Virus record (IMG/VR): IMGVR_UViG_3300030390_000791
Span: 1 to 27,795 of that record
Direction: 5' to 3' (one strand)
DNA: 27,795 bases
Origin: a virus
Of the stretch, positions 4,669 through 19,618 are shown piece by piece (the first letter of the stretch is position 1; every line of letters begins with the position of its first letter). Under the pieces are notes generated by a model, which had not been told where the DNA came from, did not search any database, and saw nothing but the letters and a program-made list of their open reading frames with translations. The position numbers and the translations under genes are program-made.

Positions 4669-5628
4669 TTATCCAGCATAGTAAACTACATCTGCTCCAA
4701 CGCCTATGGCAGCAGCAGCGGTAAACCTCATTACGAGCCTCACATTCTGACTTCCATCCATCGGTGTCATGTCGATTACACGCACTTCATTATAGTCATT
4801 TAACAGCCCGGTGCCAAAAAACAAATTGCTGGATTCCGCAGCGATCATAGTATTATCTGACATTCCTCTTGCAACAAAGACTGGTATTCCACCGAAAGAT
4901 AAACTTCCGTTGTTGTACCATTGAGTTCCACGATTATCAGAACCAGCTGCTCCAATAGTAGCGGTAAATCCACCGAGGGCTCTTATATAAAGCTTAGCCG
5001 CTTTGTTAGATACATAAAGTCTTAAATCTTCCTTTCCAAATAATGCATTTGGAATTAAATCTACAACAGCTTGCATTTTATCAATAATATTTACGCTAGT
5101 TAAGGCAACTGGAGCAGGTACATCAATTACTGTTGCATCAGCAGCAGCAAGAGTTTCAAGTCCATTATATTCTCCAGCTTGAGCACCACCTAAGTTCCCA
5201 GTCCAGATATTAGTTTCATTTGCTCCAGCTACTTTAGAAGCAACATAACCTACTAAATAATCAGCAAATGATGTTGGCAATCCATTAGGATTAAATGCTG
5301 AGAATCCCATTTGAGCGGCTTCCCATGTATCAATAAAATCCGATTTACATAATTGTAAATTTACCTGAAATTCTTCTGGTTGGATTATTACTTCAGTCAA
5401 ATCTACATTTGAACTAGCAGTAAAATCACAAGTTCCATCAGCGATTAGTGATCCAGTTTCTACTCTTTGTATTACTGATTTGTACTTAATGTTAGGCATT
5501 ACTGTAACACCCCCATCTTCAATTGTACTTGCGCTTAATAAAGCCGCCGATACGTAACGTCCTGCGAACTCTCCCGCATATGTGGAAGTGATATTTACAG
5601 TAGTTGCAAGGTCTATTTTTTTTGACAT
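4669..5628 (-). CDS. Major capsid protein (HK97-fold)
   Basis: I start at ATG 5628 (MSKKIDLATTVNITSTYAGE), giving 319 aa; the upstream in-frame ATG at 5664 lies inside the preceding gene and adds an unlikely leader. The sequence has the layout of an HK97-fold capsid protein: N-terminal arm, VIIQPEEFQVNLQLCKSDFIDTW (split here as strands and spine helix), a central NGLETLAAAD region, and a C-terminal QNVRLVMRFTAAAAIGVGADVVYY strand set. Its 3' part is visibly richer in GC than neighbours (GCAGCAGCAGC, ATTACACGCAC), as often seen for highly expressed genes. It lies next to the scaffold-like and protease genes, as expected. Confidence 0.8.
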   Translation of the reverse strand: MSKKIDLATTVNITSTYAGEFAGRYVSAALLSASTIEDGGVTVMPNIKYKSVIQRVETGSLIADGTCDFTASSNVDLTEVIIQPEEFQVNLQLCKSDFIDTWEAAQMGFSAFNPNGLPTSFADYLVGYVASKVAGANETNIWTGNLGGAQAGEYNGLETLAAADATVIDVPAPVALTSVNIIDKMQAVVDLIPNALFGKEDLRLYVSNKAAKLYIRALGGFTATIGAAGSDNRGTQWYNNGSLSFGGIPVFVARGMSDNTMIAAESSNLFFGTGLLNDYNEVRVIDMTPMDGSQNVRLVMRFTAAAAIGVGADVVYYAG

Positions 5629-5638
5629 AATTTTAATT

Positions 5639-6187
5639 TTAATTGTTGTTAAATAATTTAGCAAATACTCTGTCTTGAGTACTCATTTTTTTGTTTTGAG
5701 AAAATAAAGACATTTTAGGTTCTTCTTTACTTTCTGGATTGTGTTTGATTGCTTTAGCAGATAATTCTACTTCAGATTTCATTTCTTCTTTTTCACTGAA
5801 TCGTGATTTTAAATCTGCAATACCATCTTCAAGGTTTTTAATTCTAATTTCTAGTCCTCTCCAATCTTCAATATCGGCTACTTCAGCAGCTTCAACTTCT
5901 TCCACAACTGGTGCTTCAACAGTTTCTTCAACTACTTCTTCTTCAGCTTCTTTTACTTCAGAGATTAAACCATCTTCTTCAACGATTAGCATCATGCCAT
6001 CATCCAATAGATATTCTCCCTTTGGTACTGCAATTCTTTCATCTTCATCGGTTACAATAAAGACTTCTTTACCAGCTTCAAATGAATCAGCTTCAAATCG
6101 AGTGCCATTCTCAAGCATTCTTTCTTCTAACTGAACATCTAAACCTAATAAAGTTTTAACTTTGTTAAGAGTTTCTTTTGAGTTCAT
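5639..6187 (-). CDS. Acidic coiled-coil protein, probable scaffold
   Basis: 182 aa. Residues ~20-75 hold a small beta region (FIVTDEDERIAVPKGEYLLD), then a run extremely rich in Glu and Val, a heptad-like helix (DIEDWRGLEIRIKNLEDGIA) and a basic C-terminus ending KLFNNN. This acidic, helical plan directly upstream of the capsid gene is typical of scaffolding or prohead core proteins that chaperone shell assembly and are then removed by the protease. The antisense frame is open only because of its Glu codons. Role inferred from composition and position. Confidence 0.65.
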   Translation of the reverse strand: MNSKETLNKVKTLLGLDVQLEERMLENGTRFEADSFEAGKEVFIVTDEDERIAVPKGEYLLDDGMMLIVEEDGLISEVKEAEEEVVEETVEAPVVEEVEAAEVADIEDWRGLEIRIKNLEDGIADLKSRFSEKEEMKSEVELSAKAIKHNPESKEEPKMSLFSQNKKMSTQDRVFAKLFNNN

Positions 6188-16412: not shown

Positions 16413-16883
16413 TTAATATTCTTTTAAACGATTAATAACTCTTTTGATTCTATACTCTGCTTGATGTAATTGGTCTTCTGGTATCTCTTGTATTGTTTTT
16501 AATATTGGTCTTAACTTTGGATCTATTTTTATTTGTTTTAAGAAGTTAAATCTTGTTTCTAATTTTCTATGTTCTTCTTGTAGTATTTTTAGTCTTTTGT
16601 GTTTAGGTATATATTCTTCTGTTGCTATTATACGATTGTATATCTCCATGTATTTTGGGTTGTACATTGCGAATGTTGGAAATATTTTCTTTACACTATG
16701 TAGTACTGTTGCGTGATCTTGATTTAGTGTTTGTCCTATTTCTTTCAATGATAGATTAGTTCTATCTTTACATATTTTAAAATATATAGCTCTACCATAT
16801 ACTATACTACGTATTCTTGAGTTTACGTTTATTCTATATCCTAGTTCTCCTTCTACTAGTTCTTTAATTTCTTTTGTTGTCAT
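16413..16883 (-). CDS. DnaA domain IV-like DNA-binding protein
   Basis: 156 aa. Residues ~22-68 (RSIVYGRAIYFKICKD ... LSLKEIGQTLNQDHATVLHS) match the DnaA C-terminal DNA-binding domain, including the QDHATVLHSV signature that contacts DnaA boxes. The AAA+ ATPase part of DnaA is absent; the rest is a helical tail (KILQEEHRKLETRFNFLKQI). It could recognise origin or operator sites, compete with host DnaA, or act in packaging given its position before the terminase genes. Function beyond DNA binding is inference. Confidence 0.75.
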   Translation of the reverse strand: MTTKEIKELVEGELGYRINVNSRIRSIVYGRAIYFKICKDRTNLSLKEIGQTLNQDHATVLHSVKKIFPTFAMYNPKYMEIYNRIIATEEYIPKHKRLKILQEEHRKLETRFNFLKQIKIDPKLRPILKTIQEIPEDQLHQAEYRIKRVINRLKEY

Positions 16884-17274: not shown

Positions 17275-17721
17275 TTATAATTCGTTTCGTAATCTTTCTT
17301 TTGTTTTAGTGTGTGTTTCTGGCTGAAAGAATAACTTTAAATCTTCATCATTTCTTATTGTGTAAGTATGTTTAACATAATCAATTTTCATTTTTTTATC
17401 TTTAACAAACGACCAATTTTTTAATTCATATATAATAGAATAAGTATCTGTTTTAGCTTTATTTGTATTTATGTCGCTTCTTATTATAAAAGAACAAAGA
17501 TAAGTATTATCATTTAATTTAACATCAACAAATTTAGACAACTCTCTTAAAGTATTTATACTAACTTTGTCAGTGTGTTTTTTGTGATCTATTATAAAAC
17601 CATATTTGGATCCTATTTTAGAGATAAAACAATCAATATCCATTATTGATCTGTTTCTGTCTGTTAGTTCGCTTATTAAATAGTTAAATTCGTTATTGTA
17701 ATAATTTTTGTTAAAATTCAT
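17275..17721 (-). CDS. Hypothetical protein, possible PD-(D/E)XK nuclease (148 aa)
   Basis: MNFNKNYYNNEFNYLISELT then SIMDIDCFISKIGSKYGFII-DHKKH and a Lys-rich C-terminus. The spacing of Asp28/Asp30 to DHK (about residues 45-47), with a hydrophobic strand before it, resembles the PD-(D/E)XK nuclease core (Asp ... Asp/Glu-x-Lys). The resemblance is short and unconfirmed. It lies directly after the ABC-ATPase/GNAT fusion with a 20-bp gap and an A-rich leader. If real it could trim DNA or partner with a modification enzyme. Otherwise unassigned. Confidence 0.6.
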   Translation of the reverse strand: MNFNKNYYNNEFNYLISELTDRNRSIMDIDCFISKIGSKYGFIIDHKKHTDKVSINTLRELSKFVDVKLNDNTYLCSFIIRSDINTNKAKTDTYSIIYELKNWSFVKDKKMKIDYVKHTYTIRNDEDLKLFFQPETHTKTKERLRNEL

Positions 17722-17741: not shown

Positions 17742-18935
17742 TTAGAACATTGATATTTGATTTTGTGCAACTTCTTTATATGCTTCAGCTTTAAATACTA
17801 ATATGTTTATATTTTCTTTATATTCTTCTCCAATGTATTTATAAGACTTTGTTACACTTTCTTTTTTGTATTTTATGCCAGTATGAAATGATTTGCCTTC
17901 TTCTTTTAATTTTTTATAGTATTCATTATATTTTTTCATTTGCTCAACATTATTATTTTCACTGGCTAGCTTCCAATATTTTTGATTACGTTGCATTCCT
18001 TTAAACAAAGATGGGTTAGAAGTTTTGATGTAAAGAATTTTATTATCTTTTTTATACATCGAGCCAAAAAAGTTAAGTATTTTTATTCCTATTCCTAATC
18101 CTTGAAAATCAGGCAAAACAACCAATCTACTCACTCTATAAGCATCTTTAACTGTGCCACTGGGCATAGGTAATATTCCCATAAATGAAACAGGTTTATC
18201 ATTATATAAAATTAAAAAACATTTAGCCGCTTTATTTAATTCTTCACTTAAATAATGATGGTGCTTGAATATATCCCAAGCTTCATATCTACATCGAAAT
18301 ATCTGAAGTTTAATTTCTGGTCTTTGCCTTCGACTTGGCGCTATCTCAAGCCGACCTTTTTGTGGTGAATATATCCAATTGGGTTGTAACCATTCCATTA
18401 TATCGAAATGACATGATGCTAATACTATTTTTTTGTTTGTACGTTTTATATACTTTTGTAATGCATTAGACATAGCCTTAGCAACATCTCTATCTACTAC
18501 TGAAGTATATTCATCAATTAATATTATTTCTTCATTAGAGGCTTTCCCTACCATATACGCCAAACTTGCTCTATATTGTTCTCCGTTTGATAAAGTATGA
18601 AACGGTCTTAACCAAGTAGGAACGCTACTTAGTCCCATAGATGAAAGTAGAAAAGTTGCTTCTTGTGGTTCTAACCAATCAAAATTAGATATTAATGATT
18701 TGTTAAAGTCAAACTTATATGTATTCAATTCTTTTTTAAAGAAGTTTTTTAATATAGTTGTTTTTCCAGAACCACTTCCACCATAAACAACGCCAATGTT
18801 CCATTCTTTTGGTAGTCTTTCTAAATTTGCGTTTATAGTTACATTACTATTTTCTTTGTTTTGTATATCAAATGCATCGTAAATATACTCTGTGTATTTA
18901 TCGTTTAATATATTATGTTTTAATTCTATTTTCAT
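17742..18935 (-). CDS. ABC-type ATPase fused to GNAT acyltransferase (COG2401-like)
   Basis: 397 aa. ATPase half (~35-200): Walker A GGSGSGKTT (52-60), ABC signature LSNGEQ (115-120), Walker B IILIDEYTSVVD with Glu142, H-loop CHFD (His176). There are no membrane segments, so it is soluble and not a transporter. GNAT half (~210-330): HHYLSEELNKAAKCFLILYN, then RVSRLVVLPDFQGLGIG (267-283), the acyl-CoA-binding loop. This matches the ABC ATPase/predicted acetyltransferase family COG2401, whose function is not established. The GNAT half recalls Mom-type enzymes of phage Mu that modify adenine; that link is my inference. ATGA overlap with the FEN exonuclease. Confidence 0.85.
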   Translation of the reverse strand: MKIELKHNILNDKYTEYIYDAFDIQNKENSNVTINANLERLPKEWNIGVVYGGSGSGKTTILKNFFKKELNTYKFDFNKSLISNFDWLEPQEATFLLSSMGLSSVPTWLRPFHTLSNGEQYRASLAYMVGKASNEEIILIDEYTSVVDRDVAKAMSNALQKYIKRTNKKIVLASCHFDIMEWLQPNWIYSPQKGRLEIAPSRRQRPEIKLQIFRCRYEAWDIFKHHHYLSEELNKAAKCFLILYNDKPVSFMGILPMPSGTVKDAYRVSRLVVLPDFQGLGIGIKILNFFGSMYKKDNKILYIKTSNPSLFKGMQRNQKYWKLASENNNVEQMKKYNEYYKKLKEEGKSFHTGIKYKKESVTKSYKYIGEEYKENINILVFKAEAYKEVAQNQISMF

Positions 18936-19618
18936 TCTGTCCTTAATTTAAGTAGATTATAACATTGTATGTATTTTAACTTTGCTTTTGATTTGTATAT
19001 GATTTTAAATAACTCATATGTCTTTTTAGTAAATTGATAATGTGTGTTACAATCTTTAAATAATTTCTTTGCATATGCTTTACCATAGCCTTTACAGAAG
19101 TTCACATTATCAGAGCTATCACCGATTATCATTTGCTCATAGAAGTTATATAAAGCATCGTAAGGACTTATCTCTATTATCTCTTGATGTTTATAATGAT
19201 AGTTATAGATAAGACAAGGTAGCTGTTTATAATCTTTGTCAAGTGATACTATTATTACGTTGTTGTGTCCTAATTCATCTGTGAGTGTTTTCCAATATGT
19301 TGCTACTAAATCATCTGTTTCAACACCATAAGAATTTTTAGTGGAGTATATTTCTGATATGTGTTCGTGCATTTCAGATAATAATTTAGGATGTTCTTTT
19401 TTCTTTCTATTAGCTTTATAATTAGAATCTAAAAGTTTTCTAAAATTACCTTTACTATTGTTAAAAGTAATTACTCTTTCTATTTCGTAAGTTTCTTCAA
19501 GTCTGTTTATTATAGACATAAAAATTTCATCGAACTTGCCTATCGCTTCATCAAGTATATCATCTACTCCACAACAAGAAGAATAAACTAAACTATCAGC
19601 ATCAAATAAAACTATCAT
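18932..19618 (-). CDS. 5'-3' exonuclease, FEN/PIN-like
   Basis: 228 aa. FDADSL (Asp6, Asp8), GNFRK...NYKANRKKK (the basic arch region), GVETDDLVA (Glu100, Asp102, Asp103), SLDKDYKQLP (Asp127, Asp129) and MIIGDSSDNV...GYGKAYAKKLF (helix-3-turn-helix) reproduce the order of T5/T7-like 5' nucleases. It probably removes RNA primers or resects ends for ERF-mediated annealing. The C-terminus is a short helical region. ATGA overlaps at both ends tie it to the ATPase/GNAT gene and a 74-aa gene. Confidence 0.88.
   Translation of the reverse strand: MIVLFDADSLVYSSCCGVDDILDEAIGKFDEIFMSIINRLEETYEIERVITFNNSKGNFRKLLDSNYKANRKKKEHPKLLSEMHEHISEIYSTKNSYGVETDDLVATYWKTLTDELGHNNVIIVSLDKDYKQLPCLIYNYHYKHQEIIEISPYDALYNFYEQMIIGDSSDNVNFCKGYGKAYAKKLFKDCNTHYQFTKKTYELFKIIYKSKAKLKYIQCYNLLKLRTE

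What the first reader, a model, noticed from the sequence alone, without database searches (positions are those of the whole stretch)
17742..18935. Soluble ABC-ATPase fused to a Mom-like GNAT domain in a phage replication block
Seen: complete Walker A, ABC signature, Walker B and H-loop, no membrane helices, then a GNAT domain with RVSRLVVLPDFQGLGIG. Known: COG2401 groups such fusions, without an assigned function; Mu Mom is a GNAT-fold protein that modifies adenine in DNA. Inference: the GNAT half (HHYLS near its start, SRLVVLPDFQG loop) may act on nucleic acid, with the ATPase coupling DNA contact to catalysis. It sits between a FEN exonuclease and a possible nuclease, as a DNA-modification or counter-defence gene might.
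Basis: partly seen in the sequence, partly recalled or inferred. Interest (0 to 1): 0.8.

Follow-up and report, generated by a model that had tools for sequence, protein, structure and literature searches.

The report
Phage ATPase-acyltransferase, probable DNA modifier
A marine-flavobacterium phage carries a two-part enzyme (an ATP-driven motor joined to an acyl-group transferase) whose relatives sit where other phages keep their DNA-decorating enzymes, so it most likely attaches a still unidentified chemical group to the phage's own DNA to hide it from host nucleases.

Summary
In detail: 17742-18935(-) encodes a 397-aa ABC-ATPase + GNAT fusion (PHROG_11143, E 3.7e-137, 'unknown function'). 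All ATPase motifs and the GNAT acyl-CoA loop are conserved across 67 diverse sequences, and the structure models well (pLDDT 91.5). The reading is partly right. The GNAT half is not a Mom-family member: no Pfam Mom hit, no significant profile-profile match, and the best fold matches are ordinary GNATs. The fusion also already has a published prediction, an uncharacterised acyl modification of a DNA base (Iyer et al. 2021, naming phage pT24, whose gene is 56.5% identical to this one).

I found independent support. In Mu-like phages the fusion occupies the com-mom slot: Com precedes it in five loci, and in a scan for Com itself 74 of 75 loci with a readable next gene have Mom or a DNA methyltransferase. 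A ParB-like protein that precedes Mom in eight loci precedes the fusion in 48. Two partners look specific to the fusion: a ~42-aa domain upstream (50 loci) and a formyltransferase downstream (22 loci, one clade).

The window's own clade lacks these partners. Most likely function: ATP-coupled acylation of an exocyclic amine of phage DNA; group, base and site unknown.

The parts
17742..18935 (-). ABC-ATPase + GNAT fusion, 397 aa
18336..18935 (-). ABC-ATPase half (about residues 1-200)
   Evidence: Pfam ABC_tran; model and Foldseek match ABC nucleotide-binding domains
18756..18782 (-). Walker A GGSGSGKTT (residues 52-60)
   Evidence: G52, S54, G55, G57, K58 invariant in 67 sequences
18576..18593 (-). 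ABC signature LSNGEQ (115-120)
   Evidence: L115, S116, G118, E119 invariant in 67 sequences
18510..18527 (-). Walker B and catalytic Glu, IILIDE (137-142)
   Evidence: D141, E142 invariant
18408..18410 (-). H-loop His176
   Evidence: invariant
17742..18323 (-). GNAT half (about residues 205-397)
   Evidence: Pfam Acetyltransf_1/7; model pLDDT 88, GNAT fold
18252..18260 (-). HHY motif (226-228), same place and register as the HYS of Mom
   Evidence: H227 at least 90%, Y228 invariant; aligned with Mom HYS but not significant
18087..18128 (-). RLVVLPDFQGLGIG (270-283), acyl-CoA pyrophosphate loop
   Evidence: R270, V272, P275, Q278, G279 invariant; G281, G283 at least 90%
17835..17837 (-). Tyr367 of the C-terminal SYKYIG, conserved
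   Evidence: Tyr in 60 and Phe in 5 of 67
18932..19618 (-). context: FEN-type 5'-3' exonuclease, overlaps the fusion's start by 4 bases
   Evidence: PF02739 1.2e-13; phrog_107 7.7e-44
17275..17721 (-). context: downstream gene, PD-(D/E)xK-like pattern, at +1 in 33 related viral loci
   Evidence: no Pfam match

Best explanation
The gene encodes a phage DNA-base modification enzyme. SHOWN by sequence: two intact halves, a dimerisation-type ABC ATPase and a GNAT with a classical acyl-CoA loop, kept together across very diverse phages and prophages. INFERRED: two ABC halves close on ATP around DNA, as in other soluble ABC ATPases that handle DNA, and place the base at the GNAT site. The GNAT then transfers an acyl group from an acyl-CoA to an exocyclic amine (N6 of adenine or N4 of cytosine most likely, since every other enzyme identified in the Com slot acts there). 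ATP hydrolysis lets the complex release and move on. The modified virion DNA resists host restriction enzymes, as with Mu Mom. In relatives, Com or a ParB-like protein plus a ~42-aa adaptor domain controls or targets the enzyme, and a formyltransferase in one clade may alter the added group further. The window's clade works without these partners or uses others.
For: Com slot: in Pseudomonas phage Komp_PAO1_1 a Com protein (PF10122, 9e-21, above cut-off) lies 5' of the fusion, after the tail-fibre genes, as com-mom does in Mu. The same holds in Psychrobacter, Nitrosomonadales and Burkholderiaceae loci. In an independent scan for Com (78 loci), Com was followed by Mom in 29 and by a DNA methyltransferase motif in 45 of the 46 others with a readable downstream gene; seven representatives are confirmed as MethyltransfD12 or N6_N4_Mtase by Pfam. 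Named phages agree: B3, UMP151, Bise, TJ1, Smp131, AP3, Chuche (MTases), PAN70, Baskent_P5 (Mom). ParB slot: a ParB-like protein lies directly 5' of the fusion in 48 loci and of Mom in 8; the same ParB domain matches the N-terminal part of phage DNA methyltransferases (phrog_498, PADLOC MTase_II). All ATPase motifs and the GNAT acyl-CoA loop are conserved in 67 sequences. Published prediction of DNA nucleobase acyl modification for this fusion in phage pT24 (PMC7824862); the pT24 homologue is 56.5% identical here.
Against: No direct chemical evidence. The window and its viral clade (152 loci) have no Com, ParB or adaptor, so the slot argument is carried over from relatives at about 32% identity. 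The Com-linked copies form one clade on the far side of the tree, so they are few independent events. The GNAT half is closest in fold to protein and small-molecule acetyltransferases and is not a detectable Mom homologue. Aeromonas phage PX29 carries both a Mom and the fusion, so they are not simple alternatives there.
Confidence: 0.68

Rival explanations
1. Protein acetyltransferase for host takeover: the GNAT acetylates a host protein (RNA polymerase, a nucleoid protein or a defence protein), with the ABC half as a targeting or regulatory part, as Rac of phiKMV-like phages does with RNA polymerase alpha.
For: Best fold matches are protein N-terminal acetyltransferases and RimI, Z about 11; phage GNATs that hit RNA polymerase are known (PMC7824862).
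Against: Z values are tied over many GNATs, so fold does not pick a substrate. It does not explain why the gene sits in the Com slot, otherwise filled by DNA-modifying enzymes, or why it shares ParB partners with Mom.
Confidence: 0.14
2. RNA-modifying or translation-acting enzyme: a soluble ABC ATPase related in plan to ABC-F/ABCE1 proteins carries the GNAT to the ribosome or tRNA; the linked formyltransferase would act on an aminoacyl-tRNA.
For: Weak whole-protein HMM similarity to ribosomal-protection ABC-F (7.4e-9; 35 bits, far below the cut-off of 380); a formyl_trans_N protein lies next to the gene in 22 loci.
Against: Generic ABC similarity; no second ABC domain; the formyltransferase is confined to one clade, mostly at the right end of Mu-like phages behind Com or the adaptor, where DNA modifiers are kept.
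Confidence: 0.08
3. DNA end-processing or packaging factor: the ABC half works like a small SbcC/RecF protein with nuclease neighbours, and the GNAT regulates it.
For: Next to FEN exonuclease and a nuclease-like gene in the window; next to terminase in ParB-type loci.
Against: No coiled coil or zinc hook in the model; ABC and GNAT stay paired even where they are separate genes (Javan141, MismyG, P335); it does not explain the Com link.
Confidence: 0.07

Closest known systems
ABC-ATPase + GNAT predicted DNA-modification fusion (Iyer et al. 2013/2021; pT24 QAX98348.1; PHROG_11143)
   Same: Same domain plan; pT24 homologue 56.5% identical; PHROG match 3.7e-137 over the whole protein.
   Different: Another member, in a marine flavobacterial phage; no experiment on any member was found. 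The 2013 paper itself was not held, so its gene-neighbourhood detail could not be compared.
Mom of phage Mu (methylcarbamoylase, PF25680, PDB 8bv8)
   Same: GNAT superfamily; relatives occupy the same Com and ParB slots; H-Y near the GNAT start and a tyrosine near the C terminus.
   Different: Not detectably homologous by HMM or profile; keeps the classical QxxGxG acyl-CoA loop, lacks Mom's invariant E108, S124 and A148-D149, and carries an ABC ATPase.
Com-controlled DNA adenine/amino methyltransferases (B3, Smp131, AP3, Chuche)
   Same: Same genomic slot behind Com as the Mu-like relatives of this gene.
   Different: Methyltransferases with S-adenosylmethionine; unrelated fold.
Nonlabens phage P12024S gp24
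   Same: 58% identical over 99%, also in the replication block of a flavobacterial siphophage.
   Different: Followed by small genes and a helicase, not by the nuclease-like gene.

Membership tests
ABC-ATPase + GNAT fusion (PHROG_11143) | full-length match, both domains in one or two adjacent genes | tested here: met
   E 3.7e-137, residues 1-373 of profile 1-354/357
ABC ATPase superfamily | Walker A, LSGGQ-type signature, Walker B + Glu, H-loop | tested here: met
   all invariant in 67 sequences; fold
ABC ATPase superfamily | conserved Q-loop glutamine | tested here: inconclusive
   no conserved Gln between Walker A and the signature among the conserved columns; not examined structurally
GNAT superfamily | Q/RxxGxG/A loop and GNAT fold | tested here: met
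   Q278-to-G283 loop conserved; Z up to 12.0
Mom family (PF25680) | HMM match above cut-off | tested here: not met
   absent from 24 Pfam hits at E<=1, while PAN70 and Mu Mom score over 250 bits
Mom family (PF25680) | profile-profile similarity to the family | tested here: not met
   hhalign probability 1.3% against 35 Moms
Mom family (PF25680) | invariant HYS, E108, S124, A148-D149, Y159, Y217 | tested here: not met
   only H-Y and a C-terminal Tyr have counterparts by eye
Mom family (PF25680) | fold of 8bv8 | tested here: inconclusive
   8bv8 not among the 50 rows shown
Com-controlled modification gene | Com Zn-ribbon gene just upstream | tested here: not met
   no Com in the window (best E 0.62); met in five related loci
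ParB/adaptor-linked ABC-GNAT module | ParB-like protein and/or ~42-aa domain directly upstream | tested here: not met
   none in the window; present in 48 and 50 related loci
DNA base modification enzyme | modified base in virion DNA dependent on the gene | not testable with these tools
   needs nucleoside mass spectrometry
COG2401 | match to the COG profile | not testable with these tools
   no COG library at hand; no held paper names it

The most novel reading that the evidence does not exclude
An ATP-powered DNA hypermodification system unlike Mom: an ABC dimer drives base access for a GNAT that puts a new acyl group on DNA, guided by a dedicated ~42-aa adaptor (alone or as the tail of a ParB-like protein), with a formyltransferase completing the group (for example an N-formyl-aminoacyl base) in one clade.
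Probability: 0.2. Interest if true: 0.8.

Novelty: new member of a known kind. Interest (0 to 1): 0.5.

Why it matters
If the prediction holds, the family would be a widespread phage DNA modification whose chemistry is still unknown: the lists here took in 76 phage records, more than 170 viral stretches and 396 genome stretches. It would make DNA resistant to restriction by a mechanism with an ATPase, which Mom does not have. Cultured carriers make the question testable now: Komp_PAO1_1, P12024S, LE3/LE4, P335, AnClar. The Com-slot swap gives a specific reason to expect modified DNA.

Tried and rejected
Mom homology of the GNAT half: rejected by Pfam and by hhalign with 4 and with 35 Moms; the Mom structure 8bv8 did not appear among the matches shown, which proves nothing by itself. 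Defence-system membership: PADLOC gives only weak partial ATPase matches (mad3, 3.8e-8). ABC transporter: no membrane segment and no permease neighbour seen. A first genome-contig scan with the single protein found nothing; the alignment query found 396 relatives. A ParB alignment could not be used for a collection scan. Searches for an experimental study of the fusion in the held papers found none; Iyer 2013 and Karambelkar 2020 are not held. A whole-genome 'same backbone, swapped last gene' comparison of Komp_PAO1_1 with Mom-carrying Pseudomonas phages was not done; only tail-fibre assembly and com DNA were seen to be shared.

Full report
OBSERVATION. The gene at 17742-18935 (minus strand, 397 aa) is real and as described. 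Its ABC half has every ATPase motif and its GNAT half has the acyl-CoA loop; these residues are invariant or nearly so in 67 non-redundant sequences down to 29% identity. AlphaFold2 with that alignment gives mean pLDDT 91.5 for the whole protein and 88 for the GNAT half. PHROG_11143, 'unknown function', covers it end to end. The window is a 27.8-kb virus record; its nearest cultured relative for this gene is Nonlabens phage P12024S, 58%.

WHAT IS ALREADY PUBLISHED. [quoted passage not shown] The pT24 gene is 56.5% identical to this one. So the idea of a DNA-modifying ABC-GNAT fusion is not new. No experimental study of it turned up in the held literature.

IS IT MOM-LIKE? Not by homology. Pfam's Mom model does not match at E 1, while true Moms score over 250 bits. 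Profile-profile comparison with 35 diverse Moms is not significant, although the only aligned stretch puts HHY on Mom's HYS. Mom's invariant E108, S124 and A148-D149 have no counterpart seen here, and Mom lacks the QxxGxG loop kept here. Foldseek and VIA-align place the GNAT half among ordinary GNATs, all tied. Sequence and fold therefore leave the substrate open.

GENOMIC SLOTS. This is the main new evidence. In phage Mu the last genes are com and mom. In Pseudomonas phage Komp_PAO1_1 an un-annotated Com protein (PF10122, E 9e-21) follows the tail-fibre genes and is followed by a 49-codon ORF, the ABC-GNAT gene and a formyltransferase. The same order with Com occurs in Psychrobacter, Nitrosomonadales and two identical Burkholderiaceae loci; whole-genome searches found one Com, above cut-off, in each of the three genomes examined. 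To learn what Com normally precedes I scanned viral contigs for Com itself: 78 loci, of which 29 have Mom, 45 a DNA methyltransferase motif, one a tape-measure gene, and three had no readable gene (two of them at record ends); seven methyltransferase representatives were confirmed as N6-adenine or N6/N4 DNA methylases. Many of these loci are near-copies, but nine annotated phages from several genera agree. One annotated case, DVM-2008, has a gene of unknown family there. Com thus marks DNA-modification genes, and the fusion is one of the things it marks. All identified enzymes of this slot act on exocyclic amines, which is what a GNAT would acylate (inference). In Flavobacterium Mu-like prophages, too, one of the last ORFs is reported to be a DNA-modification gene (PMC7761591).

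PARB SLOT. A ParB-N protein lies directly upstream of the fusion in 48 loci (42 of 80 genome loci, 6 of 12 phage records) and directly upstream of Mom in 8. Its domain also matches the N-terminal part of phage DNA methyltransferases. ParB-like genes are common in phages, so this is weaker than Com.

TWO PARTNERS SPECIFIC TO THE FUSION. A ~42-residue domain (phrog_28816-like, pattern FGVIVxCxDExEQ...L...G...+V.V) ends within 60 bases of the fusion's start in 50 loci, either as its own small gene or as the C-terminal tail of the ParB-like protein, and never before Mom. A formyl-transferase-domain protein follows the fusion in 22 loci, never with ParB and never after Mom; those copies form a single, fully supported clade. 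In five aligned copies the HPS(L/P)LP motif and an Asp are kept, while the residue where GART has its catalytic Asn (from general knowledge) is Gly or Leu, so its chemistry may not be plain formyl transfer.

WHERE THE WINDOW STANDS. Its clade of viral copies carries none of Com, ParB, adaptor or formyltransferase and lies apart from the Com clade. ParB-linked copies lie on both sides of the midpoint root, so a ParB-linked ancestor with later loss is likely but not shown. In 33 related viral loci the next gene is the 17275-17721 family with an invariant D-x-D...D-x-K pattern, possibly a nuclease that spares modified DNA; this is inference.

MECHANISM AND ODDS. Best reading (0.68): ATP-coupled acylation of phage DNA bases against restriction. 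Rivals: protein acetylation for host takeover (0.14), RNA or translation (0.08), DNA-end or packaging factor (0.07). Shown: domains, motifs, fold, slots, partners. Inferred: DNA as substrate for this copy, dimer on DNA, acyl donor, base and biological effect.

LIMITS. The 80 genome loci are the best matches only; Com-linked copies amount to few independent lineages; neighbourhood classes rest on home-made HMMs and simple ORF calling, checked with Pfam on representatives.

Noticed in passing
L088 5683-5931: Komp_PAO1_1 carries an un-annotated Com gene; the submitted annotation places a different ORF (5595-5759) there.
   Followed up: yes
L084 6603-7433: The GNAT part of the fusion in Enterococcus phage 9184 is annotated 'DNA polymerase'; in Streptococcus and Oenococcus phages the ATPase part is annotated 'ABC iron siderophore transporter'. 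In Porphyromonas phages the ~42-aa adaptor is called 'acr candidate'.
   Followed up: partly
L088 7113-7730; L089 7128-7601; L091 2312-2962; L274 9088-9606: Formyl-transferase-domain proteins next to the fusion keep HPSLLP/HPSPLP but have Gly or Leu where GART-type enzymes have the catalytic Asn (recalled); in Gordonia phage AnClar the gene is annotated 'tRNA-methyltransferase'.
   Followed up: partly
L340 353-2482: Two Mom genes in tandem, each behind its own ParB-like gene.
   Followed up: no
plasmid hits H66-H82 and phage hits H52-H60: An ABC-ATPase about 30% identical to the ATPase half alone occurs in over 870 plasmid records, those listed about 105-120 kb (phage-plasmid size), and in Rhizobium phages, where it is next to a DUF2829 gene; no GNAT was seen in the matched stretch.
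   Followed up: no
L090 and hits H9, H89 (Aeromonas phage PX29): One genome carries both a Mom homologue (36309-36881) and the ABC-GNAT fusion (53320-54165).
   Followed up: no
L198: A contig labelled Woesearchaeota carries a copy 74% identical to the window's; probably a flavobacterial phage contig binned wrongly.
   Followed up: no
window 17275-17721: Conserved gene family with invariant D-x-D...D-H/Y-K and E, no Pfam or PHROG match; PD-(D/E)xK-like.
   Followed up: partly
window 16413-16883: DnaA C-terminal helix-turn-helix (PF08299, 2.7e-12) in a phage gene without the DnaA ATPase; genes of similar sequence recur near the fusion in related viral loci.
   Followed up: no
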